DNA of 64,000 nucleotides from contig CAWUHX010000012.1 of NCBI GenBank assembly GCA_963922205.1, positions 1,984,001-2,048,000 of the forward strand. Reading direction: 5' to 3'. This document shows positions 1-60,673 of the stretch, one piece after another (positions within the stretch are counted from its first letter, which is position 1; each line of letters opens with the position of its first letter). The notes below the pieces were generated by a model. That model was not told the origin of the DNA. It did no database searches and was given only the letters and a program-made list of their open reading frames with translations. This DNA comes from Romanomermis culicivorax. Its lineage: Eukaryota; Nematoda; Enoplea; Mermithida; Mermithidae. A program made the translations under genes and the position numbers.

Positions 1-712
1 ACCACAAATATTACATACATATGCGCCACAAATGTTGCATTCACCATAAACGTCGCATGCGCTATACATGTTACACACACCTAATGTGCTACAGCTGCCA
101 CATGGGCTGCAATTGCTACAAACGCCACATGCATCATAAATGCTCTATGAACCACAAATGTGACATGCACCGCAAACGCCTCATTCACCACAAACGCCTC
201 ATGCGCCACAAACGCCCCATGTGCCACAAACGCCTCATGCGCCACAAACGCCTCATACGCCACAAACGCCTCATGCGCCACAAACGCCCCATGCGCCACA
301 AACGCCCAATGCGCCACAAACGCCTCATGCGCCACAAACGCCCCATGCGCCACAAACGCCTCATGCGCCACAAACGCCCAATGCGCCACAAACGCCTAAT
401 GCGCCACAAACGCCCCATACGCCACAAACGCCTCATGCGCCACAAACGCCCAATGCGCCACAAACGCCTCATGCGCCACAAAGGCCCCATACGCCACAAA
501 CGCCCCATGCGCCACAAACGCCTCATGCGCCACAAAGGCCCCATACGCCACAAACGCCCAATGCGCCACAAACGCCTCATGCGCCACAAAGGCCCCATGC
601 GCCACAAACGCCCCATGCGCCACAAACGCCCCATGCGCCACAAACGCCTCATGCGCCACAAACGCCTCATTCGCCACAAACGCCTCATTCGCCATATGCG
701 CCATGAACGCCT
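1..712. repeat. 18-bp minisatellite array
   Basis: Head-to-tail copies of an 18-base unit, consensus GCGCCACAAACGCCTCAT, with the last codon-like triplets varying between CCTCAT, CCCCAT and CCCAAT. Copies are nearly perfect from about 180 to 705 (about 29 units) and decay towards position 1, so the array may continue outside the window. Because 18 is a multiple of three and the unit has no stop in several frames, long repetitive reading frames exist on both strands (e.g. repeated MRHKRL, APQTPH, WRMRRL). These are by-products of the repeat; nothing supports a protein. Confidence 0.95.
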
Positions 713-920
713 CATGAAACAACACTTACAGAATGATAAATTCAAAACTTTTAACACTATAATGCAAAACATAGTAGTAGGCTAACAGAGTTGGGCCGAG
801 TAACTGCTCAGAAACAAAATTTGTCGAAATTGGTTTAGAAAATCCCGAACTTTGACTTTCAAAATCTGATGCACTTTTTTTGCTGAATTAATATCACCAT
901 TGTGGTCAGATATGTAACTA

Positions 921-4120: not shown

Positions 4121-4825
4121 GTAATATTTAAGAAACAATTTCTGTAAGAATTAACCGAGGCCTTTAAGTGTGATAAGTAAAAAATTAATCATACCTCAAA
4201 AAAGCACATTTTGTACCGTTTTTTGCGCTGAACAACATGCCAATGTTTGTTTGATCTAAAAATCAAAATTCGCATTGAAAAATCAATCCAAAGGTTGAAA
4301 TTTTTTTCAATTCTCAAAATTTTAGGTCACCAGGTATGCAATGTGGATCAATAATTATTTGTCAGTGTATCTAGCAATGCTTAGTGTATATGCTTGGCAC
4401 ATGTACTTATATGTAGCATCAAAATTATGGTTTACACTACACTTTAAATTTCAGTTTTCAGCAGTTATCAATGACTCAAATTAACACATTTTTGTACCCC
4501 GTAAAGTCAAATAATGAGTCTCATTGATCAAGCTCCACTATGTTATGGCTGGTACCCTTGGAGGCATACCCACAAAGTTTTATCAAAATTAAAAAAACCA
4601 TTGAGTGTGCCACAGTGAAACAAGTGGAAGCCATTTTTGAATCAAATTATGGAATTTTTTGTTTAAATATGCACTCATTCACTCAAATATGTAATAATCT
4701 AACTAAAACCTTTACGCATTGTAGGCCGACCTCTTGACTATATACCAATAAAGCTCGATCATAATGTCCTTATCCCTTACATGGGAAATTATACAAAGTA
4801 AAACATGTTTTTAACATTGATGATA
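4121..4825 (+). repeat. left terminal inverted repeat of the split DNA transposon
   Basis: Matches the reverse complement of 21537-22247 over nearly its whole length, with scattered substitutions and small indels. Paired blocks include TGATTAATTTTTTACTTATC near the outer end and GGGAAATTATACAAAGTAAA at the inner end (about 4787-4806). Confidence 0.85.
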
Positions 4826-4920
4826 AAACTTATGATGCAAATTTGTGTTCCATTCATTTAAACTATCACTATATCAAATCACAGTATCTTAACTTCAATG
4901 AATGAAATGAAGCCCACCAG

Positions 4921-5229: not shown

Positions 5230-5569
5230 TTTCCATGTACATGGTTTGGATTTTTTTACTTTTACTGTGGGATGGAAGCTATTGACATGTTAACCAAAGT
5301 TGTTAAAGCAATGGGAGTGCAAATGGGACTCACATGGAGACAAAAAACTACATCAAAGCCAAAAGAAGCTAAATTGTATTTAAAAGGCGATTATCAACTG
5401 CACATAAAATCAAAATCACATGTTTCTGATCATAGTTCATTGCGTGCTTTAAGTGATTCAATCCATCCGAAGTTACAAGAGAAAGGTACAAATTACATTC
5501 ATGACATGGATTGTGACGATGGTGAGCAGTTAAAGAGGATACTGAGAGACATCCAAGAAGCAGTGACTT
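5230..5569 (+). pseudogene. transposase-like gene remnant, 5' part
   Basis: An open stretch reads as MEAIDMLTKVVKAMG, then KGDYQLHIKS, HSSLRALSDSIHPKL and a Cys/Asp-rich HDMDCDDGEQLKRIL segment. It stops abruptly where the gypsy LTR begins at 5570. The pattern (basic DYxLH, ALSD, D/C-rich HDMxC, LKxIL) fits a large uncharacterised protein family that I recall from cnidarian and other invertebrate genomes. The family name is not claimed. The reading frame continues after the insertion at 19640. Upstream codons are not recognisable. Confidence 0.6.
5566..5569. repeat. target site duplication ACTT, left copy
   Basis: ACTT directly precedes the 5' LTR and recurs directly after the 3' LTR (19640-19643). 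A perfect 4-bp duplication is normal for Ty3/gypsy integrases. Confidence 0.9.
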
Positions 5570-6048
5570 TGTTGGGGTGGCGCCAGGTGCACGTGTTCAG
5601 CTTCCGGCGTCGGTGCGCAGGCGGTTGGACGCGGCGAAAAGTGGCGAGAAAAGAATGATAAATTTGCATAGGTTATTTCTGCCACTGTTTCGCGTTTTTG
5701 CTGTCTTTTTATTAGTGTGAAAAAAGACTTGTTTATGGAGCGTCGCCGCCATCGTCTTTATTATAAGATTTTTGTTTATTATTTTATATTGGCGTCGCCC
5801 TTCGTCACCCAATACAACTTGGACCTGTAAGTTGTTTTGTTTTGTGAGCGTAGTGGAAGGAGTCTTTAAGATTAGGAGTGGAGACTTGGGTAGGAACTCC
5901 TGAGGTACGTGCCAAGGTGTTCTGCCTGAGGTTTAGTGAAAGTTCTGGTGTATATCTGGTGAAACGTCTGGGAGAGTTTGGTGTTTATTGTTGTTGTTAG
6001 CCTGTGGTCAGAACTGTTGCTTAATTGTGACCCCACAGCAGCCTAACA
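5570..6048 (+). repeat. 5' LTR
   Basis: 479 bp, beginning TGTTGGGG and ending CCTAACA (TG...CA ends with a short inverted repeat). It appears identical to 19161-19639. It contains AT-rich stretches that could serve as promoter and a strong donor-like GTAAGT at 5827. No AATAAA was seen. Confidence 0.97.
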
Positions 6049-6132
6049 AGTGGTGGCCTCTTAACGCCTCTCACGACGGATAACCGGAGAACCACCAGAA
6101 AAATAACTAAACCTCCTGGGTTTTATTTGCAG
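5827..6132 (+). promoter_or_regulatory. possible leader intron or subgenomic splice signals
   Basis: CCT/GTAAGT at 5827 in the LTR is a near-consensus donor. TTTTATTTGCAG at 6121-6132, just upstream of gag, is a good acceptor. Together they could define a leader intron. Alternatively the same donor could serve a spliced ORF3 message. Inference only. Confidence 0.3.
6049..6070 (+). promoter_or_regulatory. primer-binding-site candidate
   Basis: TGGTGGCCTCTTAACG starts two bases after the 5' LTR. The leading TGG complements a tRNA CCA end, as expected of a minus-strand primer site. The matching tRNA was not identified. Confidence 0.4.
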
Positions 6133-6156
6133 TCACATACCGGAAAAATTAAAAAG

Positions 6157-9100
6157 ATGAGTATTCTGGTAGGAAAAATGTTGAGGACTCCTCCTAGGTC
6201 ACATGAACCTAGTGTTTCGAATCTGGACTCTGCTGAAGAACACGCAGCGGTAGAAAAGGTTCAAGCACAGGCGCCTGAGACTGAAGGAAGGAGAGAGAGT
6301 GGAATTGCCGAAATGGCAAGAGTTGAAGAAGAGTTGAGGAGAAGTAGTTTTGAGATGGCTAGGAGAGCCGAGATTGAAACTACTGTAAGTGGTAGTGTCA
6401 GAGGTCAGCAGACCTTTGAGAAGGAGAGACCGACGTCGCCCTCGAAGTTGGTCCATCCGATGGCCGAGACGCTGGAGGAGATTAGACGGAAATCGAAACC
6501 GGCGTGGAGGTCAAACATGGTGGACATGAATTACGACGAATATTACGAGGACGCGCCGGCCGATTTATACGACGACAAATATTCGAGGCGATACGACCCC
6601 GAAATGGCGAATTTTATTCGGCAAGAGGAGAAGAGGGATCGAGTCGATCCCAAGGACGTACGAATTAACGCACTGGAGAAGAAGGTCGAATTATTGATCA
6701 AGGTTATCGAAAGCGCGCAGATCAAGGAAAAGGAGTCGGAGGATGATCAACGGAGGAAGATAGGTGAGTCTTCTTACCTTGAGAATAGAGTTGAGAGAAT
6801 TAGTGAACCGAAGAGAGAGGTTCATTCAGAAGTTTATGTCAGGTCTCAAGAGGACAGAGACAAATATTCGGCTAGAGACAGAGGTTGGACTGAGGAGCCG
6901 CAGAGTTCGAGGAATGCTGAACAAGCACAATCGAATGCCTACGGTTACTCAGAGAATAGGAGGTCGAGGGAAAGGAAGGTGACTATTTGCGACGAATCGT
7001 CCCAGGGAGAGGATAGGTTTTCTCGTCCTACTCCTTGGAGAGATACCGCAAATAGAGCTGACCTTAGCCCTGAGAGGAGAAGAAAGAGAAAGTCAAAGAG
7101 TCGAAAGAGATCTCACAGATCTAGAGCTAGGAGTAGACATTACTCAGATAGTGATAACAGCAGTTCATCTACTTCGAACTCTAGCTCAAGTGTTGAAGTT
7201 GATGTGAGAGATGTGGTAAAGGCCTTGAAACATAGACCTTTGCATGATAGTATAAAGCCAACGGAGGCTTTGAAGTTTTTTACTGATCTGGAAAGTGAGT
7301 TTCTGGAGAATACGGCTGATAAAGTGAAGAAAGAGTGTTTGAGAAGGTTGTCTCAGAACACGGCAAGGAGGATAGCGAGAACATCCTCAAGTTATACAGA
7401 AGCGCGGAGGAATATTTTAAAGTATCTCGCGCCGACTTATGATTTGACGATGCTTAAAAGAGAGTTATTTAATATGAAACAGGAAGAAGGCGAGTCAGCC
7501 TTAGAGTTTTTAAAGAGATTGAGTAATCATGTGGATCTGGTCTATGCAGATCAGAGTGATCAAATAAGGCAAGAGAATATTATTAATGCCTTCATTTATA
7601 AGAGTAGTCCGTTGTACCAGACGGAGTTGCAGGATGTATTGCCATCAATGAAAACTTGGCAAGACCTTGCATACGCCGTAACTCAGATTGATAAAAAGTA
7701 TAAGAATGTGTTTACTACTTTTGGAGCCAAAGATAAACCGATTGTAGTGAATCAAGTTGTAGCGGAGGAGGTATGCCCGGAAATTGCTTTTGTCGGGAAT
7801 GCTCCGTATGGAAGTACTAAAAAGTATAACCAAACGAAGTCAAGACCACAAAATCAGTTGCAAAAGGCAGTGGAAGAGGAGAGAAGTGAGGAGAATGCGG
7901 AAGAGATGATACCTGGTCCGTCGCCTCGTGATGTCAAAAAGTCTAACGAGGAGCAGGCCAAGGAGTCTTTTCTAGCTATTCTCTCAAAGGAGTGGCTACA
8001 ATTGGTTCAGAAAGTAGACAAATTACAAGTTACTCAGAGTGAAGCCTTAAAAGAGTTGACTACTGTGAAGGCTGCGTCTGCTGAAAAGCAGAAGCAGTTG
8101 AAGCAGCAGAGACCCTATTGCATTTATCATAAGAATAATACGCATGCTACGGAGGAGTGTAAGACATTAGCATACCGGCGTCAGCAACAGCAGCGCGGTG
8201 GATTTAACCGTGGCATGTCTAATCAATATTATGGTGGTGATAGGAATGCTTCATATAGAGGAAGTTTTAGAGGTAGAGGTGGACCTCAATTTGGATTTAG
8301 AGGAAGAGGAAGAGGTGCCTATTATGTAGGATTCCCCGAAGAAGATCAAATGTACGGGTATGACCCAGAGTTTGAGAGATACAGGGAATTCTGCAGACTT
8401 AGGGAGCAAGGCATCCAGTTGCAGAGGCAACCTCAGTTGATGCTACCTGCACCAACTAGTCAACCTGCTATTCAGGGTAGTACCGTCCAGGATCAGTCTG
8501 GATCATTTGTTTCGAACCAGTCGCAACCTAGTTCGCATAACGTAATGGTGACAAGCCGTACGGATGTGGATGATGAAAGCGAAAAGAGTAGAAACAAATC
8601 TTCTAGTTTGGTTCTCGGAAGTATTATTCACCTGGATAAGGTGACACCTCTAGAGAAAGTGAAAGAAAGAGATTTGGCTCATGTGAAATATGGAAGAAAA
8701 GCAACGGACGTAGAGAGAAGGTTGTTGGAAAATTATCCGAAAACGGTTCCGTTCTATATAAATGTGGTTATTAAAGAAACGGCTACCAGAGCTTTAATTG
8801 ATACAGGAGCTCAGTGTACAGTCATGTCTTCTAAGCTTCTGAAAAGGGCATTAGACGTTGATTATACAGTGTACCCTCGTATCCTTAAAGTGACTGTAGC
8901 TGATGGAAAAGTTGTGCATGCCTATGGGTATGTACCAGTTTGTATGAAGACTGAATTCGGAAGTTTTCCAGTCAATGCTATAGTGTTGCCAGATGCAGGT
9001 GAGGACCTGATCTTGGGCACAGATTTTTTGGCACACCCAGATTTAGGTGTAGTGATTGATTTCAAAAGAAATGCCATGACGATACAGGGCATTGAGAGAA

Positions 9101-9843
9101 AGATTGACGTAGTTCAAGTTCCTTCTGTAACTACTGTGCAAACGGTAATGGAAGAAGTAACTAAAGTCAGTGTGGCGTCGACTGATTGCATAAGTCAAAT
9201 TGTTTATCCAAAAGTTTGTCTACTAAAGACAACTGTTGCAATTGTTGCATGTAGTAAAACCTACATTCCATATGGAACAGATGTTTTGATGAAGGCAAAA
9301 CTTTGGGATCAACATGGAGATGCCACATTGAACGGAATTATTGTCGAATCAAAGGATTCTGAAAGGAAGTTCAGAATGGAGAAAGCGGTTGTAGACGGAT
9401 CACAAGAGGAGTTTGTAGTACTAATCTCCAATACCACAGGTTCTGGATGTCGGTTTGAGAGAGATCAAATCATTGGCTATACAGAATCTATACTTATTGA
9501 AGATGATGATACGTACAACAAAGTGAAGGAAATGAAAAAGATAAAGGAGGAAGAGGAATATCAGACCTGCATGGTAAAGGAAGGAATGCCTGCATTATCA
9601 AAAGCTGATTCTGTAGAGTTCTATACTTCACTATGCAAGATGATATCAAAGGCAAAAATTTCGGAAGAGAAGAAAACGGAAGCTATAGAGTCTTTCTTGA
9701 AGTACAGAGATGTCTTTAGCTTGCCTGGTGATCCGGCTACTACAACCCCAGCTCTGACATGCAAGATAGATACAGGGGATGCAAGACCTGTAGCAAAGAG
9801 ATATTACAGAGCTTCAATTAATAGTCGGCCAGGAGTAAGGTGA
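6157..9843 (+). CDS. gag-pro: Gag-protease polyprotein, frame ends at TGA inside pol
   Basis: The start is taken at ATG 6157; an in-frame run upstream to 6127 lacks ATG. Order seen: charged N-terminus; an Arg/Ser-rich tract near 7070-7190; a retrotransposon-gag capsid-like region (about 7200-7700); a Cys-His knuckle of CX2HX4HX4C form (8118-8160); an RGG-rich stretch (about 8190-8330); an aspartic protease with ALIDTGAQC (DTG at 8800-8808) and the second-loop motif LILGTDFL (about 9008-9031); then the start of the RT module. It packages element RNA and supplies the protease. Translation stops at TGA 9841-9843, and the next ATG-led segment continues in the same frame. The break is either a point nonsense mutation or a readthrough site. 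Confidence 0.93.
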
Positions 9844-12807
9844 CACATAAAGGAGATGTTGGATCAAGGAGTGATCGAGCCCTCGAAGTCACCGTGGGCT
9901 GCACCCTTGTTCCTGGTTGGAAAGAAAGATGGAACTACGAGACCCGTAGTGGATTTTAGAGGTATAAACGAAGTGACTAAGGATGATAAATATCCCATCC
10001 CGAGAATGGATGACTATTTAGATTGCCTTGGAAGAGCGAAGTTCTATACGACTCTAGATTTGAAGTCGGGATATTGGCAGGTCCCGATGGAGGAGGAAAG
10101 CAAGGAGAAAACGGCCTTTATATGCCAAGAGGGCTTATTTCAATTTAAAGTGATGCCGTTTGGGTTGAAGAATGCACCTGCTGAATTCCAAAGGATGATG
10201 GAGAGAATCCTTGGGGATTTAGTATGGAAAATTTGCCTAGTGTATATAGATGATATTATCATCTTCTCGAATACGTTCGAGGAACACTTAGAGAATATGA
10301 ACTTGGTGCTAGAAGCGTTGAGGAAGGCGAAGTTGACTCTTAAGCCAGAGAAATGTGAATTTCTTCCCGAGAAGGTGCACTTTTTAGGACACATCTTGGA
10401 TGCGAATGGAATTTCTCCGGATCCTAAGAAGGTCAAGGCGATAACGGAATTTCCATTCCCGGATTCTGTTAAGAAAATGCAGAGATTCCTAGGTATGCTA
10501 CAATGGTGTAAGAAATTTATACCGGACCTAGCAGCACTAGCCGAACCTTTGTACAAATTAACAGGCAAGAAGGGAACATGGAATGTAACGGAGTTGCATT
10601 ACACAACTTTTGAGAAGCTCAAAGTAGCATTGACCTCAGTACCTTTCTTAAGACATCCAATTTTAGATGGATCTGCACGATTCATTCTTCAAACGGATGC
10701 CAGTGGAATTGCATTGGGAGCAGTGTTATGTCAAGAGACTGACTCGGAACGTTGGGTAGTTGCCTACAATAGTCGGATATTGCGGGCAGAAGAAAGGAAA
10801 TGGTGCGCCACCGAAAGGGAATGCTTAGCTGTGGTTTACAGCCTAAAAATTTATAAACATTATCTTTTGGGCCAAAAGGTCAGGATTCAAACTGACCACA
10901 AACCATTATTATCAATGAGGGTGAATACACAGACTAATGACAAACTCAAGAGGTGGAACGCATTCATTTGCCAGTTTAATCACAAGTTGGAGTATGTGCC
11001 TGGCAGACAGAATGCCATGGCAGATTTCCTCTCAAGGAAGGAGGAACCGGATGAGCAGAAAGAGAAGTTGCCACCAAAATGGGAACTTATCTTTCAGAAA
11101 GAAGAAGTGAAATCTCTTACTGAAGACGAAGTCCTTAACCAAAACCACAAAGTTTTAGTGAAACAACTTCGGGAACTCAGAGGAGATGAAGTGGATGAGG
11201 CTGTAGGAGTCTTCACTCCGGTGAAGATGGCCACAGCTTCAGTGGCTTCAAAGTATAGTGTTAGTGATGAAACTCAACTTAATATTTCTCCAGAATTTGA
11301 TAATTATCGAACGCCTGAGAAATATGAAATTGAGGCGGTAGTCACTAGACAAATGGCAAAAAACTTGCGGCAGGAGGAAAAAGGACATCCTCCTGGGCAA
11401 GCAAAACCTAAGGAAGAGGTGAAGAGAATTTTTGAACCGAAGGAGAAGGAGTTTGAAGAAGCCCCAGAGATTGAAGATGGTAGATCGAAAGGGCTTATCT
11501 CAAACGCCTTGATGTCAAAGTTGCAAGGAAAGGATAAAGATCTAAAAGTGATCTTCGAGAAACTAGGTGCTAGTAGTAGCACTAAGTCTCAAAGTAGCTT
11601 TTATATCGATCAAGGGATACTATATAGAGAGACTTTTGGCGAGGCAGAGGATCAAATTGTTGTCCCCTCTGTTCTCAAAAAAGTTGTCCTGCATCAGTAT
11701 CATGGAGCAGTGATGATGACGCATCAAGGATTCAAGAGAACCCTTGCTATTATTAAGAAGCGGTTCTGGTGGCCGAGCATCGAAAAGGATGTTCGGAGCT
11801 GGATCAGTTTTTGTCCGATATGTCAAATTGCGACTCCAGGAAAGGCTACAATTCCGCCATTGAATCCAATCATTCCTAGAGGACCATTTGACATAGTCTC
11901 TGTAGATATTGTGGGAATATCTCCCATGAGCGAGAAAAGACCGTATGTGATAGTATTTCAAGATTACTTTACAAAATGGGTGGAAGCAGAAATGATCCCG
12001 GATCAATCTGCTGTAACCATTGTGGACAGTTTTCTTCGGAATATTGTGTTCAGGCATGGAACCCCGGTGAAATTGTTGAGTGATAACGGTTCATGCTTTA
12101 CAGCTGATTTGATGACGTCAGTCTGTAAATTGTTGGAGTGTCAGAAGATTTTCACAACTGCCTACCATCCACAAGGAAATGGAATGGTTGAAAGGTTTAA
12201 CCAAACCTTGATCAAGCAGTTGCGAAAGGTTGCTATAGAGGATTCAGATAAGTGGGACAGATATTTGCAATCTGTCGTTTTTGCATATAATGCCACACCT
12301 CATACCTCAACGAGATGTTCTCCATTTGCCTTATTGAGAGGTCATGAGGCAAATTTTGGCATTAGTATTGGTGTTGCTAGAAACATAGTTCTGCCAATGA
12401 ACTATGAGGCTTATAAGCATATACTAACCGAAAGTTTAGTAGAAACTTATGAGACCATTGCTGAGAATATCAGGAAGGCTGCGGAGAGCAGTAAAAAGTT
12501 TTTCGACCGTAAAGCAAAAGCTCATGATTATTCCGTCAATGATTGGGTTTTGCTGAAAGTCGATAAACAGAAAAAACTGGGTCTTCCGTGGCAAGGACCG
12601 TATGTTGTTACTGATAATAGTAGATTATCAGAGAATGTGCTTGAAATCGCTCACTGGAGAGAGCCGCTGAAAAAGCAGGTGGTATCCGTGAGCAGGTTAA
12701 AGCACTTTCGCTACGAGACCGGCAGATGGCTGCAGTCTAACGACGTGTCATCTAAGGACACGCAGTTTACTGTAGATTCAAAAATTGATAATTATAAACT
12801 GCCGTAG
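9844..12807 (+). CDS. pol: Pol: reverse transcriptase, RNase H, integrase
   Basis: In frame with gag-protease, directly after the TGA; the first ATG is at 9856. RT: IEPSKSPWAAPLFLV, LDLKSGYWQV, MPFGLKNAPAEFQ and catalytic YIDD at 10243-10254. RNase H: QTDASGIALGAV near 10690 and a TERECLAVVY block. Integrase: HHCC zinc finger (HX3H and CPIC, about 11690-11825) and a DDE core with aspartates in SVDIVGI and LSDNGSCF and glutamate in MVERFNQT. The C-terminus has a GPY-type module (LPWQGPYVV). This encodes cDNA synthesis and integration. All catalytic residues checked are present and no other stop or frameshift was found. Expression would need suppression of the TGA or internal initiation. Confidence 0.95.
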   Translation, partial: HIKEMLDQGVIEPSKSPWAAPLFLVGKKDGTTRPVVDFRGINEVTKDDKYPIPRMDDYLDCLGRAKFYTTLDLKSGYWQVPMEEESKEKTAFICQEGLFQFKVMPFGLKNAPAEFQRMMERILGDLVWKICLVYIDDIIIFSNTFEEHLENMNLVLEALRKAKLTLKPEKCEFLPEKVHFLGHILDANGISPDPKKVKAITEFPFPDSVKKMQRFLGMLQWCKKFIPDLAALAEPLYKLTGKKGTWNVTELHYTTFEKLKVALTSVPFLRHPILDGSARFILQTDASGIALGAVLCQETDSERWVVAYNSRILRAEERKWCATERECLAVVYSLKIYKHYLLGQKVRIQTDHKPLLSMRVNTQTNDKLKRWNAFICQFNHKLEYVPGRQNAMADFLSRKEEPDEQKEKLPPKWELIFQKEEVKSLTEDEVLNQNHKVLVKQLRELRGDEVDEAVGVFTPVKMATASVASKYSVSDETQLNISPEFDNYRTPEKYEIEAVVTRQMAKNLRQEEKGHPPGQAKPKEEVKRIFEPKEKEFEEAPEIEDGRSKGLISNALMSKLQGKDKDLKVIFEKLGASSSTKSQSSFYIDQGILYRETFGEAEDQIVVPSVLKKVVLHQYHGAVMMTHQGFKRTLAIIKKRFWWPSIEKDVRSWISFCPICQIATPGKATIPPLNPIIPRGPFDIVSVDIVGISPMSEKRPYVIVFQDYFTKWVEAEMIPDQSAVTIVDSFLRNIVFRHGTPVKLLSDNGSCFTADLMTSVCKLLECQKIFTTAYHPQGNGMVERFNQTLIKQLRKVAIEDSDKWDRYLQSVVFAYNATPHTSTRCSPFALLRGHEANFGISIGVARNIVLPMNYEAYKHILTESLVETYETIAENIRKAAESSKKFFDRKAKAHDYSVNDWVLLKVDKQKKLGLPWQGPYVVTDNSRLSENVLEIAHWREPLKKQVVSVSRLKHFRYETGRWLQSNDVSSKDTQFTVDSKIDNYKLP

Positions 12808-14080
12808 CGCGTAGCGCTGTTTTTCGCGTGTGTGTGTGCGTATGAATACCCCCCCATATTTTTTCGTCCCGAATTGTGTATTTAAGTACAAATTGTAATT
12901 AATTGTATTTATTTATGTATTTATCGTGTATTTATCATGTATTTTTAAATTTTTCTCGCGTAAATCTTTAAATTTTCAAAAATTCTTGGTAAAAAACCAC
13001 TCTTCGCAAAAACCTAAAATTTTAAAAACTTTTTTCGCGGCCTAAATCGTAAATTTCCCCGAGTCCGAGTAATTTTTTTGGAGGAAATAGTTAGTTGTTG
13101 CCCCCCAATTCTGTGAATATTGGAAGAATTGGGAAAACCGCTGAGTTTTAGAGTGAAAATAGACAAAAAGTAGCGAAAGCGGAAAATTTGTCGATTTTTC
13201 AGCTCATATTAAACAATTTTAAAAAAAAATTTTGCAAAAATTGATAGCGCCGAATTATTAGAATTCGAAAAAGAAGCGGAAGGAATGTCCAGGCCCCCCA
13301 ATGGATGCCGGACGAAACAGTATTTGGTCACGGACCCCCACGTGACCTACAGACAGCCGCAGGTGCGGCAAAACAATCGGTATTTTTTAGTCGATGGTAA
13401 GCGACCTAAGTTTTAAACTTAGTTAATCTAAAAATTAATTGGGCAAAGCAGGATGTCATAGCCCACGGGTGTCTAGACGAAGGCCTAGACAATTGTAAAA
13501 GTTTAGTGGGAACAAAATTGTTCTGTCAGCTTGAAAAAGTGTGGCAAAGCTGCCCATAGCGCGAAGTTTGGACTTTTTGCGAAACTACATCATTCCTCTA
13601 CACACATAGCGAGTTGAATAAATTCGTCTATGTGATGGGGAAGAAGTGGAGTGTAGCAACTAGTCGACTAGGGGTAGATATTTTCAAAATTTATTTAAAT
13701 TTCTAAATTCCATCTTTACTTAATTTTCTACGAATTTCCACATTTTGGGTAAATTAGTAAATATATTTTTAAATTTCTTCTTGGAAATTCTTAATTTATT
13801 AGTTGGATAGGCCGTTTTGGGCGTTGGATTGAGATGGCATGCAGTCGATTGATGGAAGACGCAGGTGGTCTGTGCGTGTACTCCCGTATAAGGTAGAAGT
13901 CGGGGCCGCACTTGTGTTTAACTATCTGCCAACACTAACCCAATATATGTTTGGTACCTTATTTTCCCCTGCTTGCAATTTTCTCTTCTTCTTTCCTATT
14001 TGTGCTTACTATCTGTGGTGAAGGTAGAATTTAACCGATGTTTGTCCGCTTTGGGAAAAATTTTCATTAAAAAGTTGTAA
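12808..14080 (+). other. internal spacer between pol and ORF3
   Basis: 1.27 kb without a credible reading frame. It includes AT-rich and C-run segments, and a GGTAAG donor-like site near 13396. A T-rich tract ending TTTTTTAG (about 14095-14102) lies just upstream of the ORF3 coding sequence and looks like a splice acceptor, as expected if ORF3 is made from a spliced message the way env genes are. Confidence 0.6.
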
Positions 14081-14137
14081 ACATTTCGCCTGAATTTTTT
14101 AGACTACAATGTCAAGCGCATTGTTAGAGTCGGCGAA

Positions 14138-17100
14138 TTGGAACGATGGTTTGCAACGACGTTCGGAAGATTTCCGTTGGAACTAACAGAACCGAAATTG
14201 GTCGAAATAGGTAAGGTGGCTGAGATGGTCGAAACCTTGAAGGACAGTAGGTTTCGAGGACAGCCAGTTATCGGTTTTGATACCGAGAAAGTTACTCAAG
14301 AGTATGTGAGTAAGGTTTTCGCGACTTCTGGGGTTGATAACCCAAAAGGGAAGGAGTTCGCGAGAGTCATTAGCTTCTCGACGGTGACTGGAGACACCTT
14401 TGTTGTAGATACTACGACAATCATGCCGAAGGAATGGACGCTCATTCATGAGCTCTTAGATTCGGACATGCTTCTCGTTGGATACAACTTGGTTACAGAT
14501 CTGGTTGCCATCTGGAATGTTAATGGCGCAGGCAGAAATCACCAGGATGTTGATCTGACAGCAGAGATCAAGTATAGAATTACATCTTCGTATGGCCGTT
14601 ATTATGACGTAGCCAAGGTAGGAGATCAATTGAATGGAAGATTTTTGGCAATGTCCAGGAAGTTGGGACTTTGCCCGGAAACTTTTAAGCTGAAAGGGTT
14701 GTTCACGGAGCTGTATCTGGCGGACGTTGGTTATTTCCAAATCGATTTCCGTCAGAGAGCGCAACGTGAACGATTCTGTAGGCACACGTTGACGCAGTTT
14801 GAAATCAGGTATTCAGCACTGGACGCCTACTACTCATTGTTGGTTTTCTTAGCGTTTTTCCACTATGAGTTAGCTATGGAAGTCGAGGTCGGATTCCAGT
14901 ATTTTCCGCATGATTTGATGAAAGCGGATCAAATCCAGATAATGTCGTACAGGTTGTACAGGTTTTTTAATATCATACATGGAGAGAATTTTCCGCAGAC
15001 TTTTTGTGGAAGTCCGGAAGTAGAGGAGCCGCAGTCGTCGGCTATTTACCACGTAATGAGACAGGAAGCGTATGCCCGTATGGCTGCCCAAATGGACACC
15101 TCATTTGGAGGCTATGTGGAGTACAGCTTCCCTCATTACGAGGCAAATCCGAAGAGAGGAAGAGACGTGAGTATACCTAAAGGAATTCATCCTGATTATA
15201 CCGTTAAAGAGAAAAGTAAGAATGTAGACGGTAACGATACGGTAAGTGAGGACGAAGAGTTCGAAGAAGCTTTGTCGGAAAAGCAGATTAGAACTCGAAT
15301 AATGAACAAGGTGGTAGATATGGTTAATCGAGGGAAGAGTTTCAGTAGACTCGATGAACCAGTATCTATGGTTTTATACGAGAATTATCTAAGGTATAGA
15401 AAAGAAACGAAGCAGTTATTGGAGATACCAACTCTGGAAGTTGATTACCACGAGTATGAACCGGTCAGAATTTCGAACGGTAAAGACTCGTATGTAAGGC
15501 AACACTGGAGTATGGATATCGCTCCTTATTCTGAAATATTGATCGAAGACAATTTTAAGAATCTGGAGTCAGTGTGTAATAAAGTTCCGCTCACGTTTCA
15601 TTTGTTTTGGCCAGCTTGCAGAGAGGAAGCGGAGGAGTACCTTACCTCTCTCCTTGACCACAACTATTTAAGATCCTTTAGCCCTGAGGGAAAGGAACAA
15701 CTCTTGAAGATGTTGTGGAGGGGAGATAGGTACGGTCAGTACTTATCATTTTTGAATAGTCTTCCAGTAACAGAGGTACATACGCCAACCAAGGGCGATT
15801 CTATTACATGTTGGGGAAATCGTTTCGGATTTCTGCCGATCCGATTTTGGCCTAAGACAAAGTCATGGGAGCAAAGACCGGAAGATAAAAGGAAGCATTT
15901 GGCGGAGTGTCCGCAGTACAAAGATAATCCGTACTGCTATCAGAGGTTTTACTTCCGCCAGATAGCTGTTAGAGTTCCAGGTTTGCGATACCCAATAGAT
16001 ATGAGTGAGGACGCAACGAAGGAGAACCAGAAAAAGAGCGTCTTAGCGTATCAACCGGAATACGTTCCAGGTTATGAGCCGCCATTTTTTGAGCCGATAT
16101 TGCCGTCCGATGCTCCAGGTTTTACGATTACGCATATTGGCGATAAGGTTGTAGTGACGCCGATAGGTAAGCAGCCAGCAGTGCCGGTTACAGGCACTGA
16201 GGTAAGCACAACGGTGACTCAACAATCTGGAGTTGATATGAGTAGTTTGGATCAGGTGCAGGGGATGCAGGCTGAGCCTGTTGCGGCGAAAGCACAGCAA
16301 CAGGTGATACCTGCAGACCTCAACACCCCCATAGACTTGAATCAGGTAGGAGACGATTTAGAAGTGGACAATGAGGTCACTGTTGAATCGTTGATACAGC
16401 CTGATCAAGAAACACAGGTAACTTCTTTACTAGATCAGACAGAGAGTTTACTTTCTGGAATGGATGTCAGGGCAGAGCCGATGTTGGATGAAAGCAGTCT
16501 GATAACGATTGCTGCAAGTCCAGCAATAGAGGAAATTGAAGCAAGGCTCAGGGAGCAAGCTGAAAAGGAAATCAAGAGACAGAAGGAGATTTTTACTAAG
16601 CAGCTTGCGGAGCAGAAAGCGAGATTAGATCAGCAGCAGAAGCAGCTGGAACTAGTATTGGCTGGTTTTACGGCGCAGCCGACGCCTCTGGCAGCGCCTA
16701 CAGTCGTGCAAGCTCCAGCCAAGCCGCCTACTGCTTATCATATCCCGAAATTGCCGGTGCAACCTTCTAGTACGCAGGTCATCCAGCCTGCGGTCAGCAA
16801 GGTTACGCCGACAGTTCAAGTAGCGCCCAGAGATCCAAGTATGGACGGTGGTATACCAGGTATGTATACTGCCGAAGAGGTCAGAAAGTTCAGAGCAGAA
16901 GGTCGTACAGACGAACAAATTAAAAGACTAGGAAGACGAAAGTTAGCCCGAAGGGCCAATAGGGCTAAAAAGAGAGATGAAGAGGATGTTATTGAAATCA
17001 GTGATGGTGAAGGAGAACAGACAGGGAGTTCTACGTCTGTGGATTTGAAGTTTGCAGGATCTACAACTTTATTAACGGATTCAACCAAATCCAAGACTGG

Positions 17101-18418
17101 AACTACGCCGACAAGCCTGATGCCTGGAACCAAAAGTTCTACGAGTCAGGTGCAGTCGACGGTTGCTTCGGCTAAAGTACCTAGTAAATCGTCTGCATCT
17201 CAGGTAAGTGCAACGACGAAAAGTACTTTGGCTAAGCCCTTGTCTAAGGTCGATAAGACTTCTCAGCAGGACCAGAGCAGCGCTTCAGGGAAAAAAGTTG
17301 TTTCTAAACCCTCTACGTCGGAACCAACAAAATCGGTCAAGAGAAGTAGAGATAAGGAAGTAACTTTGGAGTACCTAAGTTCTGTTTTGAGGGACTACTG
17401 GGATGTCCATAAGAAGTTTCCCTTGGTGAAGAAAAGGATAGATTTTTCGACACCGGAGGTGATCGAATTCTTTGCTCAGGATATGCCAGATGATAATAGG
17501 AATCAAATCATTTGGGCATTAGTGAATAATGGAGTAGAGGAGCTTTACGAGAACTACGGGGATCACTTTGATGTTCAAGGTGGTTTCCTGTATGATCATG
17601 TAAACGTTCCTGAGCCCATTTGGGAGTATATTTGGCTCAAGTTTATGCCAAATTGGTTTCATCATTTTGATGCGGAAATAGTGATGGCAGCCGTGAGATA
17701 CTTATGTACCATGGTGTTGCTAAAATTAGAACAACAGCAGTTGGGCCCGAGACATATTGGTGCAATTGATGCACGGGCCAAGTCATTTGTCACAGAAAGG
17801 TATTATTCTATCTACCTGCGGGGAGAAGGTAGTACTGCATTCAGGGAAGCGTACGCCAACCGAATGCAGGAGCACCAACAAACTGCAGTAGATATGGCAG
17901 CAAAGAGAAGGTTGGCGGACATGGTTCAGAAATTTTCTGGTAAATTCCAGAAGGCCGAGGATGAGGAGGGGCAACCCTTCAAGATTCCAATGTTAACGGA
18001 AAGACAACCTAGAGATGCTTCCAGGACTAGGAGCCAGCACTCGCGACAATCGTCTCACTCGCAGGGTCGGCACCAGCCTGGAGTGTTCAAATTACCGTAT
18101 GCGAATCAACAAAGTCAAGGTAGGTCCACTACCTCAGCTTCAGGAGTATCTTCCGTAAGTTCCACTCAGGGCTCGTACCAGAGGGGAACTGGAGGGGGAT
18201 ATGGCCGGGGCTGGGGTCAGGGACAGGGTCAAGGTAGACCCTTTAAGATGGTTAATCCGCAACCGTATAGAGGACAGGCGATGGGCGGACCCCCTCGTGC
18301 AGCCCAACCTCGAGGAGTTTTTGGGGGATTCCTCAGGGGTCGTGGAGCTCGAGGTGGTCCCTACCCTCGCCGTGGTAGCTTCCAATACGGCGGTTATGGT
18401 GGCGGCGGGCAACAATAA
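14138..18418 (+). CDS. ORF3: DEDDy 3'-5' exonuclease-RGG protein
   Basis: About 1,426 codons from a non-ATG (TTG) codon; open upstream to 14081; first in-frame ATG at 14225 (residue 30). Exonuclease domain at about residues 40-250: ExoI VIGFDTE (D48, E50), ExoII GYNLVTD (N117, D121), ExoIII RYSALDAYY (Y225, D229), so all DEDDy residues are present. Next come an unrecognised region rich in aromatics (about 400-640), a Gln/Pro/Thr linker with a coiled coil (about 795-850), a basic RRKLARRANRAKKR tract, a predicted helical domain (about 1070-1270) and an RGG/GGY-rich tail (about 1345-1426). It has no signal peptide or membrane span, so it is not an envelope gene. Known relatives of this fold trim RNA or ssDNA 3' ends (WRN and Egalitarian type). 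A role in RNP or cDNA-end processing is inference. Confidence 0.9.
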   Translation: MERWFATTFGRFPLELTEPKLVEIGKVAEMVETLKDSRFRGQPVIGFDTEKVTQEYVSKVFATSGVDNPKGKEFARVISFSTVTGDTFVVDTTTIMPKEWTLIHELLDSDMLLVGYNLVTDLVAIWNVNGAGRNHQDVDLTAEIKYRITSSYGRYYDVAKVGDQLNGRFLAMSRKLGLCPETFKLKGLFTELYLADVGYFQIDFRQRAQRERFCRHTLTQFEIRYSALDAYYSLLVFLAFFHYELAMEVEVGFQYFPHDLMKADQIQIMSYRLYRFFNIIHGENFPQTFCGSPEVEEPQSSAIYHVMRQEAYARMAAQMDTSFGGYVEYSFPHYEANPKRGRDVSIPKGIHPDYTVKEKSKNVDGNDTVSEDEEFEEALSEKQIRTRIMNKVVDMVNRGKSFSRLDEPVSMVLYENYLRYRKETKQLLEIPTLEVDYHEYEPVRISNGKDSYVRQHWSMDIAPYSEILIEDNFKNLESVCNKVPLTFHLFWPACREEAEEYLTSLLDHNYLRSFSPEGKEQLLKMLWRGDRYGQYLSFLNSLPVTEVHTPTKGDSITCWGNRFGFLPIRFWPKTKSWEQRPEDKRKHLAECPQYKDNPYCYQRFYFRQIAVRVPGLRYPIDMSEDATKENQKKSVLAYQPEYVPGYEPPFFEPILPSDAPGFTITHIGDKVVVTPIGKQPAVPVTGTEVSTTVTQQSGVDMSSLDQVQGMQAEPVAAKAQQQVIPADLNTPIDLNQVGDDLEVDNEVTVESLIQPDQETQVTSLLDQTESLLSGMDVRAEPMLDESSLITIAASPAIEEIEARLREQAEKEIKRQKEIFTKQLAEQKARLDQQQKQLELVLAGFTAQPTPLAAPTVVQAPAKPPTAYHIPKLPVQPSSTQVIQPAVSKVTPTVQVAPRDPSMDGGIPGMYTAEEVRKFRAEGRTDEQIKRLGRRKLARRANRAKKRDEEDVIEISDGEGEQTGSSTSVDLKFAGSTTLLTDSTKSKTGTTPTSLMPGTKSSTSQVQSTVASAKVPSKSSASQVSATTKSTLAKPLSKVDKTSQQDQSSASGKKVVSKPSTSEPTKSVKRSRDKEVTLEYLSSVLRDYWDVHKKFPLVKKRIDFSTPEVIEFFAQDMPDDNRNQIIWALVNNGVEELYENYGDHFDVQGGFLYDHVNVPEPIWEYIWLKFMPNWFHHFDAEIVMAAVRYLCTMVLLKLEQQQLGPRHIGAIDARAKSFVTERYYSIYLRGEGSTAFREAYANRMQEHQQTAVDMAAKRRLADMVQKFSGKFQKAEDEEGQPFKIPMLTERQPRDASRTRSQHSRQSSHSQGRHQPGVFKLPYANQQSQGRSTTSASGVSSVSSTQGSYQRGTGGGYGRGWGQGQGQGRPFKMVNPQPYRGQAMGGPPRAAQPRGVFGGFLRGRGARGGPYPRRGSFQYGGYGGGGQQ

Positions 18419-19160
18419 TTTCATATAGCCGCTTACTTTTTGGACCAAAATTCGTTATTTCGTACAAATTTTATTTCAAAAATATAAAAATACAAAAACA
18501 AAAATAAAATACAAAATACAAAAGAAAAATATATTATCTCGTTTTATTGTTGCTTTAAATTTTAAAAAATTTTCTCATTTCCGGTGCTCAAACATTGCCC
18601 GGCAAAATTCGTTATTTCCGTCCATCTTATTTCGGGCGTGTATATAGCCCTCGTATTTTTTCTCGTTTACTTTCAGGGCCTGAAAAAGATGAAGACGTGA
18701 AATTTTATTTTGCGTTTATAAATTTATTTCGTAAATCTGAAATATTTTATAGAAAATATTTTTTACTGAGTAGATTTGTATTGGACGGAGCGATGTGGCG
18801 AGCGGCCGACCGGGGAGGAAGCGCACCTGGGGCACCTCATCACCGAGGTTGTAAAAACCAGGAAATGGGAGAAGAGGAACGGCGACGCCCCGGATCTAGG
18901 CACAGATCGACGTCAAAGTCCAGGCCGAACTACGTTCGTGATCGTTTCCGGTAGCCCGAAAGGGAGTGCCCTGCCGAATGGATTGGTCAAGGTCGCCGTC
19001 ACCTGAAGGACCTGGTAGGGGCTGGATCACATCTTGGAGGGGGTAGCCCCAAAAATTTGTTTTCCGAGGGGAAAACTGTTATGCAGTCGGGGCCTCAGTA
19101 TGAGACTCAGGCTGCAGAAAGGTTTTCACCTCCCGTTGGTCGGTTTTGAGGGCCGAGGGA
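18419..19160 (+). other. 3' untranslated part of the gypsy element
   Basis: An AT-rich tract (18430-18780) is followed by a GC-richer block (18780-19160). A 119-codon frame at 18595-18954 has no recognisable motif and is probably chance. The last bases before the LTR, GAGGGCCGAGGGA (19148-19160), are the polypurine-tract candidate, although interrupted by CC. Confidence 0.6.
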
Positions 19161-19639
19161 TGTTGGGGTGGCGCCAGGTGCACGTGTTCAGCTTCCGGCG
19201 TCGGTGCGCAGGCGGTTGGACGCGGCGAAAAGTGGCGAGAAAAGAATGATAAATTTGCATAGGTTATTTCTGCCACTGTTTCGCGTTTTTGCTGTCTTTT
19301 TATTAGTGTGAAAAAAGACTTGTTTATGGAGCGTCGCCGCCATCGTCTTTATTATAAGATTTTTGTTTATTATTTTATATTGGCGTCGCCCTTCGTCACC
19401 CAATACAACTTGGACCTGTAAGTTGTTTTGTTTTGTGAGCGTAGTGGAAGGAGTCTTTAAGATTAGGAGTGGAGACTTGGGTAGGAACTCCTGAGGTACG
19501 TGCCAAGGTGTTCTGCCTGAGGTTTAGTGAAAGTTCTGGTGTATATCTGGTGAAACGTCTGGGAGAGTTTGGTGTTTATTGTTGTTGTTAGCCTGTGGTC
19601 AGAACTGTTGCTTAATTGTGACCCCACAGCAGCCTAACA
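19161..19639 (+). repeat. 3' LTR
   Basis: 479 bp, TGTTGGGG to CCTAACA, with no difference seen from the 5' LTR. It is followed by the target duplication ACTT. Confidence 0.97.
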
Positions 19640-19643
19640 ACTT
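19640..19643. repeat. target site duplication ACTT, right copy
   Basis: Matches 5566-5569 exactly and marks the right border of the gypsy insertion. Confidence 0.9.
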
Positions 19644-21121: not shown

Positions 21122-21536
21122 AAAAAATCTAGCGATGTTTGATCCTCATTTAGAATATGAAAGTAAACTACTGAAAACAGATTGTTTTGAATAACTGTTT
21201 CAGTAATTAGTATGTAGATCAGACTTTTTGAAACATTTTATTTGGTTTAGAGCAAAAATTTCTATTGGATCTGAATGGATTTTACTTTGAGCTCTTATCA
21301 TCCGAAAATGATATAAAGGATGCCAGTTCTTGTTGAAAATTTGAACAATCTTTCATCCTATGGTTAACCAATAGAACGCGGATTTTCTAGTTTTTTAATA
21401 CACAACAAGCATCAAGATTTTGAAGCAACGTAGCAGGTATGTAGCCACACACTCTGGCTGCAATATAGCCGATTTAGCCTTGAATTAATATTTTGACTAA
21501 ATTGAACATAAATTTGCACCTGAAGTTTTTTCAATA

Positions 21537-22247
21537 ATATCAAAAATGTGTTTTACTTTGTATAATTTCCCATATATGGGAAAGAGATACTATGACCAAA
21601 CCTTATGGGTATATAGTCATGAGGTCGCCCTACTATTCATAAAAGTTTTAGTTGGATTATTGCAATTATGAGGGAATGAGTGCATTTTTAAACAAAAAAT
21701 TCCATAATTTGATTCAAAAATGGCTTCCGCTTGTTTCCCTGTGGCACACTGGTTTTTTTAATTTTGATAAAACTTTGTGGGTATGCATCCAAGGGTTCCA
21801 GGCCACAACATAATGGAGTTTGATCAATGACACTCATTATTTGACTTTACGGGATACAAAAATTGTGTGAATTTGAGTAATTGATAACTGCTGAAAATTG
21901 AAATTTAAAGTGTAGTGTAAACCATAATTTTGATGCTACATATAAGTATATGTGCCAAGCATATACTCTAAGCATTGCTACACACACTGACAAAGTTTTA
22001 TTGATCAACATTGCACACCTTATTACTTATAGGCCTTCAATCATTGTGGCCTAAAATTTCGAAAATTGCAAAAAAAATTTGAACCTTTGGATTGATGTTA
22101 CCACGCGAATTTGAAATTTTAGATCAACGAATACTGGCATGTTGTTCAGCACAAAAAACTGTACAAAATATGTTTTTTTGAGGTATGATTAATTTTTTAC
22201 TTATCACAACCTTGGTCGAGCCTAAGAGAAATTGTGTCTTAAAAAGT
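21537..22247 (-). repeat. right terminal inverted repeat of the split DNA transposon
   Basis: Reverse complement of 4121-4825, about 0.7 kb with moderate divergence. The outer end is near TAAGAGAAATTGTGTCTTAA and the inner end near 21540. Confidence 0.85.
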
Positions 22248-32077: not shown

Positions 32078-32173
32078 TGCTAAAAAAATTAAATAAGCGG
32101 AAGTAAAAAAACTAAGGTCAGAATAGGTATAATCGTTCAATTTGTTCAGAAATAGGATATTTGCCCAGAACAC

Positions 32174-35586: not shown

Positions 35587-60673
<25,087 letters not shown>

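What the first reader, a model, noticed from the sequence alone, without database searches (positions are those of the whole stretch)
14138..18418. A young gypsy retrotransposon carries a complete DEDDy exonuclease as a third gene
ORF3 has D48-x-E50, N117-x3-D121 and Y225-x3-D229 in the right order and spacing for a DEDDy 3'-5' exonuclease, in the position where env normally sits. It has no membrane features. From memory, DEDDy ORF3s were reported in LTR and Penelope-like elements of bdelloid rotifers; a giant version fused to a coiled coil and an RGG tail, in an element with identical LTRs, seems new or little described. The enzyme may trim primer, RNA or cDNA 3' ends (inference).
Basis: partly seen in the sequence, partly recalled or inferred. 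Interest (0 to 1): 0.92.

Follow-up and report, generated by a model that had tools for sequence, protein, structure and literature searches.

The report
Nematode retrotransposons carrying an exonuclease gene
A jumping gene multiplied in the genome of a mosquito-killing nematode carries an extra gene for what looks like a working enzyme that trims the ends of RNA or DNA, and relatives in the same genome keep such an enzyme under strong selection, although no one yet knows what it trims.

Summary
Confirmed and widened. The window matches the Romanomermis culicivorax v2 assembly (359.1 Mb, 595 scaffolds). The element is a 14-kb Ty3/gypsy retrotransposon with identical 479-bp LTRs and a 4-bp target duplication. 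ORF3 looks like a spliced gene: a 37-codon exon at 13285 joins in frame across a 706-bp intron, as in a relative with 41% identical exonuclease, giving about 1475 aa. Its N-terminal domain is a DEDDy exonuclease: D48, E50, D121, Y225 and D229 are invariant among families 26-42% identical to it; N117 is not. Of 33 copies found, 31 are uninterrupted and 32 keep all five residues. Changes shared between copies show strong purifying selection (exonuclease: 4 nonsynonymous, 27 synonymous). A distant Ty3/gypsy lineage in the same genome also carries DEDD-type exonuclease ORFs after pol, with dN/dS 0.04-0.09 in eleven comparisons. DEDDy ORF3s are published for bdelloid rotifers (PMC5408684), so this is a new variant of a known kind. 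Substrate and role are inferred; no structure, RNA or activity data. This copy has a stop codon in gag-pol.

The parts
5566..5569 (+). target-site duplication ACTT, left copy
   Evidence: repeated at 19640-19643; matching 4-bp duplications in 23 of 26 copies with complete LTR pairs
5570..6048 (+). 5' LTR, TG...CA, 479 bp
6127..9843 (+). gag-protease frame (first ATG 6157); protease 8758-9036; ends at an in-frame stop 9841-9843 between protease and RT in this copy
   Evidence: no stop just before the same place in 10 of 10 other copies looked at
9856..12807 (+). pol: RT 9919-10398, RNase H 10672-10977, integrase zinc domain 11662-11832, integrase core 11881-12171
13285..13396 (+). ORF3 exon 1, coding part: 37 codons plus one base; acceptor AG at 13201-13202, donor GTAAGC at 13397
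   Evidence: same peptide end RQNNRYFLVD and same phase in L067
13397..14102 (+). predicted intron of ORF3, 706 bp
   Evidence: acceptor TTTTTTAG (32) or TTTTCTAG (1) in 33 of 33 copies, donor GTAAGC in 31 of 33
14103..18418 (+). ORF3 exon 2 with stop; full protein about 1475 aa
14225..14917 (+). DEDDy exonuclease domain (residues 30-260); D48 14279-14281, E50 14285-14287, D121 14498-14500, Y225 14810-14812, D229 14822-14824
14918..16477 (+). middle region of unknown fold (residues 261-780); 261-600 under strong purifying selection
   Evidence: no Pfam match for the piece 14960-16480
16478..16717 (+). Glu/Gln/Leu/Ala-rich probable coiled coil (residues 781-860)
   Evidence: composition and heptad pattern by eye
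17378..17977 (+). conserved C-terminal domain of unknown function (residues 1081-1280)
   Evidence: 6 nonsynonymous and 35 synonymous shared changes
17978..18415 (+). Gly/Gln/Arg-rich RGG-type tail (residues 1281-1426)
19148..19160 (+). polypurine-like stretch before the 3' LTR
   Evidence: by eye
19161..19639 (+). 3' LTR
19640..19643 (+). target-site duplication ACTT, right copy

Best explanation
ORF3 is a genuine third gene of a recently active Ty3/gypsy family in the nematode Romanomermis culicivorax. It encodes an accessory protein of about 1475 aa with an N-terminal DEDDy 3'-5' exonuclease domain. It is read from a spliced mRNA (an upstream exon joined to 13203, then the intron 13397-14102 removed), so the unspliced genomic RNA serves gag-pol and the spliced one ORF3. 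The exonuclease is kept catalytically competent by selection. Most likely the coiled coil and RGG tail hold it in the element's RNA-protein particle, where it trims 3' ends of RNA or cDNA during replication. Shown: gene, copies, LTRs, conserved catalytic-type residues, conserved splice signals, purifying selection. Inferred: splicing in vivo, activity, RNP association, substrate. My confidence is about 0.9 that it is a selected DEDDy exonuclease gene and about 0.4 that it acts on the element's own 3' ends.
For: 33 full-length ORF3 copies found, all aligned over 4281 nt without indels, 31 of 33 without premature stop, 32 of 33 with D, E, D, Y and D intact. Shared changes over ORF3: 38 nonsynonymous to 153 synonymous, 0.10 of the neutral ratio; exonuclease 4 to 27, ratio 0.065. 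Five residues invariant in three families at 26-42% identity to the window. A relative family (L067) with pol 64-66% identical and exonuclease 41% identical, 47 copies found, 37 of 47 without a stop in the 966 aa searched, has the same exon-intron junction and phase in the one copy read. Splice sites conserved in 31-33 of 33 copies. A1 versus A2 profiles: probability 92.6%, E=4.5e-7, against a maximum of 3.5% in 100 column shuffles; A2 matches WRN exonuclease E=7.6e-8 and a mut-7 homologue 4.1e-6. A DEDD-type ORF directly after pol in a distant Ty3/gypsy lineage.
Against: The window domain alone stays under the Pfam cut-off (21.3 against 23.6 bits). The profile of its own clade finds no solved exonuclease significantly: best hit is a ribosomal protein at 0.042, surely chance, then EXD2 at 0.48. 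The window sequence alone does not match A2 (probability 2.7%). Among single-copy changes the exonuclease is less constrained (21 nonsynonymous, 17 synonymous; ratio 0.54), which I read as decay after insertion. No RNA or enzyme data. One copy has D229N (L031). pol and gag were not tested for selection in the same way.
Confidence: 0.72

Rival explanations
1. The exonuclease is a counter-defence protein: it shortens or destroys small RNAs or double-stranded RNA aimed at the element, as some 3'-5' exonucleases act in RNA silencing (recalled: ERI-1, MUT-7, arenavirus ExoN).
For: Under selection in the window family and in clade B, whose one element read in full (L066) belongs near a distant Ty3/gypsy lineage. 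L066 has no RT match yet keeps an intact exonuclease ORF, which suggests a use not tied to its own reverse transcription. The best-matching solved structures of clade B include a mut-7 homologue.
Against: No data on substrate. I found nothing on small RNAs of this species in the one paper looked at, where its name occurs only in the reference list. Rodriguez et al. (PMC5408684) mention a mut-7-like silencing role and doubt that self-limiting elements would survive.
Confidence: 0.25
2. Catalytically inactive DEDD fold used for RNA binding, like Maelstrom or EXD1.
For: PMC5408684 names these precedents and reports the motif DEDD changed to DEED in bdelloid ORF3s. In the second lineage L083 has Ser in place of the Tyr, L074 has Glu for the first Asp and L077 is frame-shifted.
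Against: D, E, D, Y and D invariant across three families at 26-42% identity and kept in 32 of 33 copies; by eye also kept in 11 of 13 clade-B pieces, L066 included.
Confidence: 0.1
3. An env substitute used for cell-to-cell movement.
For: It sits where env sits.
Against: No clear membrane segment (maximum 1.58); RGG-type tail and nuclease domain instead. A signal peptide was not tested.
Confidence: 0.03
4. Chance motif in a long unknown protein, with no exonuclease.
For: A loose motif occurs in 19% of shuffles of ORF3; profile scores are borderline for the window alone.
Against: Invariant residues across families; link to the WRN-like clade; tighter motif, written after seeing the sequence, in 0 of 5000 shuffles.
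Confidence: 0.05

Closest known systems
Bdelloid rotifer LTR retrotransposons Juno and Vesta with DEDDy-type ORF3 (Rodriguez, Kenefick and Arkhipova 2017, PMC5408684; abstract, passages and sections 3.4 and 4 seen)
   Same: DEDDy-type exonuclease as ORF3 downstream of pol in LTR elements, in more than one lineage of one genome; no transmembrane domain; ORF3s described there as typically expressed from spliced messages.
   Different: Nematode, not rotifer. There the motif DEDD reads DEED (the authors call the residues intact) and no coiled coil is reported; here the full DEDDy set, coiled-coil-like and RGG regions, about 1475 aa. [quoted passage not shown] I saw no such test of the exonuclease ORFs. 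Homology to the rotifer ORF3s could not be tested directly.
Terminons, Penelope-like elements of bdelloids (PMC6431247, passages seen)
   Same: DEDDy 3'-exonucleases as accessory ORFs of retroelements.
   Different: Not LTR elements.
Dada DNA transposons of Laccaria and Ectocarpus (PMC3706591, passages seen)
   Same: DEDDy exonuclease encoded by a mobile element, catalytic residues kept.
   Different: Inside a DDE transposase of a DNA transposon.
WRN exonuclease and MUT-7 homologue; EXD2
   Same: WRN and the mut-7 homologue are the nearest solved relatives of clade B; EXD2 is the only exonuclease listed for the window clade, not significant (E 0.62 and 0.48).
   Different: Host proteins; the window ORF3 is too diverged for a significant direct match.

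Membership tests
DEDDy (DnaQ-like) 3'-5' exonucleases, Pfam PF01612 | ExoI DxE, ExoII Asp, ExoIII Yx3D in order | tested here: met
   invariant in A1; 32 of 33 copies
DEDDy (DnaQ-like) 3'-5' exonucleases, Pfam PF01612 | profile score over the curated cut-off | tested here: not met
   window domain 21.3 bits against 23.6; L067 17.4 bits; sister clade B 41.7 bits, over it
DEDDy (DnaQ-like) 3'-5' exonucleases, Pfam PF01612 | significant profile link to accepted members | tested here: met
   indirect: A1-A2 probability 92.6%, shuffles at most 3.5%; A2-WRN E=7.6e-8; directly A1 finds none
DEDDy (DnaQ-like) 3'-5' exonucleases, Pfam PF01612 | DnaQ / RNase H-like fold | not testable with these tools
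   structure prediction switched off
DEDDy (DnaQ-like) 3'-5' exonucleases, Pfam PF01612 | metal-dependent 3'-5' activity | not testable with these tools
   needs the bench
Ty3/gypsy LTR retrotransposon | LTR pair, short target duplication, PR-RT-RNH-IN order | tested here: met
Bdelloid Juno/Vesta DEDDy-ORF3 group | ORF3 homologous to the rotifer ORF3s | tested here: inconclusive
   protein searches with ORF3 and with its first 321 residues found no rotifer relative, the latter only three R. culicivorax proteins; rotifer sequences were not in hand
env-carrying retrovirus-like element | transmembrane anchor in ORF3 | tested here: not met
   maximum hydropathy 1.58

The most novel reading that the evidence does not exclude
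R. culicivorax Ty3/gypsy elements share an old, dedicated pool of transposon-borne DEDDy exonucleases that passes between element lineages, is needed for their spread (kept even by an RT-less element), and acts outside reverse transcription, for example against small-RNA silencing; it may be the same pool as the rotifer ORF3s, making TE-borne exonucleases a general counter-defence or replication module of invertebrate retroelements.
Probability: 0.25. Interest if true: 0.85.

Novelty: new variant of a known kind. Interest (0 to 1): 0.62.

Why it matters
For bdelloid rotifers it remained open whether extra ORF3s do anything for their elements: the authors saw no significant departure from neutrality in the extra ORFs they tested (env-like and GDSL-like, by the passages I saw) and had no activity data (PMC5408684). 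Here an exonuclease ORF3 appears in another phylum, in at least two distant Ty3/gypsy lineages of one genome, in 80 copies of two families (33, 47) plus 18 further pieces, with selection that points to a used enzyme. That makes the question testable: the domain is intact and multi-copy, and its host belongs to a phylum where small-RNA biology is well studied.

Tried and rejected
Env reading: rejected for lack of a membrane segment. Relation of ORF3 to gag (both have RG-rich tails): blastp of ORF3 against gag and pol printed no hit at E 10. Chance motif: rejected. ORF3 starting at the TTG: rejected for the spliced exon. Full-length ORF3 protein search: 0 of 5582 candidates at E 0.001. Solved structures with whole ORF3: one irrelevant match at E 1.6. 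NCBIfam and PHROGs: no useful match. IMG/VR scans with both exonuclease profiles: none. A stop between protease and RT as a family trait (read-through): rejected, 0 of 10 other copies have one there (the window line printed in that script was in the wrong frame, so the window's own stop rests). Of two contexts looked at for L066-like exonucleases, only L066 showed an LTR element; 4 kb upstream of the C313 copy (L089) held no pol-like frame of 100 aa or more. Flanks of the other 11 L066-like pieces were not fetched. LTR pairing failed by my criterion in 7 of 33 copies; of the 26 pairs, L009, L011 and L033 lack a matching target duplication, and L011 (44 mismatches, 5' piece cut by the contig end) looks mispaired. 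Codon comparison of L083 with L066 gave no alignment, and dS for L082 was saturated, so both are outside the dN/dS range; L077 is inside it although it carries a frameshift; all eleven share one reference, so they are not independent. One search ended with an error after printing the splice-site counts; its last part (exon 1 changes) was redone: 4 nonsynonymous and 8 synonymous in 32 copies.
Full report
What and where. The window is part of G000, 359,112,060 bases in 595 contigs. That equals Romanomermis culicivorax v2 (359.1 Mb, 595 scaffolds; PMC10879605 Table 1, passages seen), and the only protein relatives found with the first 321 residues are three R. culicivorax models named by UniRef (3 of 765 candidates at E 1), which match parts of ORF3 at 57-92% identity. 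It is a mermithid nematode parasitic in mosquito larvae.

The element. LTRs 5570-6048 and 19161-19639 are 479 bp, identical, TG...CA, with the target duplication ACTT. Between them lie a gag-protease frame, RT, RNase H and integrase, then ORF3. In this copy a stop codon at 9841-9843 separates protease from RT; 10 of 10 other copies examined, of 32 others, have no stop in the 40 codons before that place, so this copy's pol is interrupted while copies without that interruption exist.

The family. A search with ORF3 gave 33 full-length copies at 98-100% identity, a lower bound since 33 of 4612 candidates were scored. All 33 align without gaps; 31 of 33 have no premature stop; 32 of 33 keep all of D48, E50, N117, D121, Y225 and D229, one having D229N. 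By my criterion 26 of 33 have complete LTR pairs, 11 of 26 identical and 23 of 26 with a matching 4-bp duplication. The family moved recently.

ORF3 is probably a spliced gene. The frame is open upstream of 14138 to a TTTTTTAG acceptor ending at 14102. An exon with ATG at 13285 ends at 13396 with GTAAGC, and the join is in phase. In the window family, acceptor 1 (13202) is kept in 32 of 33, the ATG in 32 of 33, the donor GTAAGC in 31 of 33 (one GC donor, one lost) and acceptor 2 in 33 of 33; 30 of 33 gave an in-frame exon join by an automatic reading, the three others failing on the literal strings searched. Exon 1 shows 4 nonsynonymous and 8 synonymous changes in 32 copies. The relative L067 has the same junction: its exon 1 also ends in RQNNRYFLVD, followed by GTAAGC, and resumes after CTGAATTTTTTAG (one copy, read by eye from the printed sequence). 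Two families with pol 64-66% identical and exonuclease 41% identical thus keep one exon structure. The full protein is about 1475 aa. Splicing itself is inferred; no RNA was seen.

Is it an exonuclease? The domain alone matches only PF01612 in Pfam, E=2.5e-4, 21.3 bits, cut-off 23.6. phmmer against the PDB puts EXD2 first but at E=0.62. Own-genome relatives give the better test. A1 (window; L067 and L086 of one family; degenerate L078; 26-42% identity to the window) has D48, E50, D121, Y225 and D229 among its invariant columns, while N117 varies. Clade B, the 608-aa frame of L066 and its relatives, is over the Pfam cut-off (41.7 bits), and its profile finds WRN exonuclease (7.6e-8) and a mut-7 homologue (4.1e-6), with EXD2 at a non-significant 0.42. 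A1 and A2 align over 217 columns with probability 92.6%; 100 column shuffles gave at most 3.5% and the reversed profile 0.2%. The window sequence alone does not reach this (2.7%), and the A1 profile finds no solved exonuclease significantly.

Selection. Among 33 copies, changes whose rarer form is carried by two or more copies number 38 nonsynonymous and 153 synonymous, 0.10 of the neutral ratio; exonuclease 4 and 27 (0.065), residues 261-600 6 and 35, residues 1081-1280 6 and 35, residues 601-1080 and the tail weaker (0.17-0.33). Single-copy changes are laxer (116 and 152; ratio 0.32; exonuclease 21 and 17, ratio 0.54), which I read as decay after insertion. In clade B, eleven comparisons with L066 give dN/dS 0.04-0.09 at dS 0.46-2.1; a twelfth (L082) is saturated and L083 did not align. 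Four L067-family comparisons give 0.11-0.23. The pattern says that the exonuclease is used.

How widespread in this genome. PF01612 matches 119 places at E 10, 95 of 119 over the cut-off by my count of the printed rows; the window's place is not among those rows, so they are incomplete, and host genes are among them to an unknown extent. Of 20 pieces fetched (chosen to span scores and frame lengths, not at random), 12 are like L066 (69-95% identity), 1 is at 33% (L083), 4 are L067-type, and 3 are diverged relatives of the window clade (23-26%). Of the 13 clade-B pieces with L066, 11 keep D, E, D, Y and D by eye; L074 has Glu for the first Asp and L077 is frame-shifted; L083 has Ser for the Tyr. 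A search with the L067 ORF3 listed 47 copies (47 of 3952 candidates scored), 37 of 47 without a stop. L066 lies between LTRs at least 445 bp long and 99.8% identical and has a zinc knuckle, an RNase H match and an integrase zinc-domain match just under its cut-off, but no RT match, with the exonuclease ORF between integrase and the 3' LTR. Upstream of L083 stands an uninterrupted RT-RNase H-integrase frame (L088; the protease is by eye only). L066's RNase H and integrase parts are closer to L088 (48-49% and 39%) than to the window (24-27%). In an RT tree of 123 sequences, 120 of them the window pol's own best hits, the window, L067 and P0001 form one clade (support 1.0), while L088 sits in another (0.93), their common ancestor being the midpoint root of all 123. 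So two distant Ty3/gypsy lineages in one nematode carry DEDD-type exonuclease ORFs after pol. Whether by exchange, common descent or two captures I cannot tell; the domains share a short FG-R/Q-LPL-like stretch ahead of ExoI, seen by eye.

Mechanism. Most likely an accessory nuclease trimming 3' ends of the element's RNA or cDNA within its particle; a silencing-suppressor role is the main rival. Neither is shown. The RT-less L066 keeping the ORF hints at a use beyond its own reverse transcription, or at trans-complementation.

Known and new. DEDDy ORF3s in LTR elements (Juno, Vesta) and Athena elements of bdelloids are published (PMC5408684; abstract, passages, sections 3.4 and 4), as are DEDDy domains in Terminons (PMC6431247, passages) and Dada transposons (PMC3706591, passages); a review calls the DnaQ-like domain a well-known accessory of LTR elements (PMC6338049, passages). 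The rotifer paper reports no significant departure from neutrality for its extra ORFs; [quoted passage not shown] The searches listed no paper that by title and start of abstract describes such ORFs in nematodes; open-access text only. New here, as far as those searches go: the nematode occurrence, the large spliced multi-domain form, and clear purifying selection on the exonuclease.

Noticed in passing
window 4169-4866 and 21488-22208: Inverted repeats of about 700 bp, 85% alike, flank the LTR element; without the element they would be about 2.5 kb apart, so it looks inserted into an older long-inverted-repeat element.
   Followed up: no
window 9841-9843: In-frame stop between protease and RT in this copy, absent from 10 of 10 other copies examined, although this copy's LTRs are identical.
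   Followed up: yes
L066 (C69:273200-282200): LTR element with RNase H and integrase remnants, no RT match, yet an intact 608-aa exonuclease ORF and 99.8% identical LTRs: apparently a non-autonomous element that keeps the exonuclease.
   Followed up: partly
L089 355-1296 (C313, upstream of an exonuclease copy): Frames resembling a TREX/RNase T-type DEDDh exonuclease (PF00929 24.3 bits on the first; no match for the second) next to a DEDDy copy.
   Followed up: partly
G000:C158:182213, 187991 and 193769: Three PF01612 matches spaced exactly 5778 bases apart, apparently a tandem array of an exonuclease-bearing unit.
   Followed up: no
window 36729-60848, minus strand: Exons of an animal-type fatty acid synthase or polyketide synthase (ketoacyl synthase, acyl transferase, zinc dehydrogenase, thioesterase); an Arf GTPase exon at 31823-32188.
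   Followed up: partly
window 1-770: Tandem array of an 18-bp unit, open in several frames on both strands.
   Followed up: no
window 42603-42674: tRNA-Ser (anticodon GGA by ARAGORN; tRNA by Rfam) within the synthase region; anticodon not checked further.
   Followed up: no
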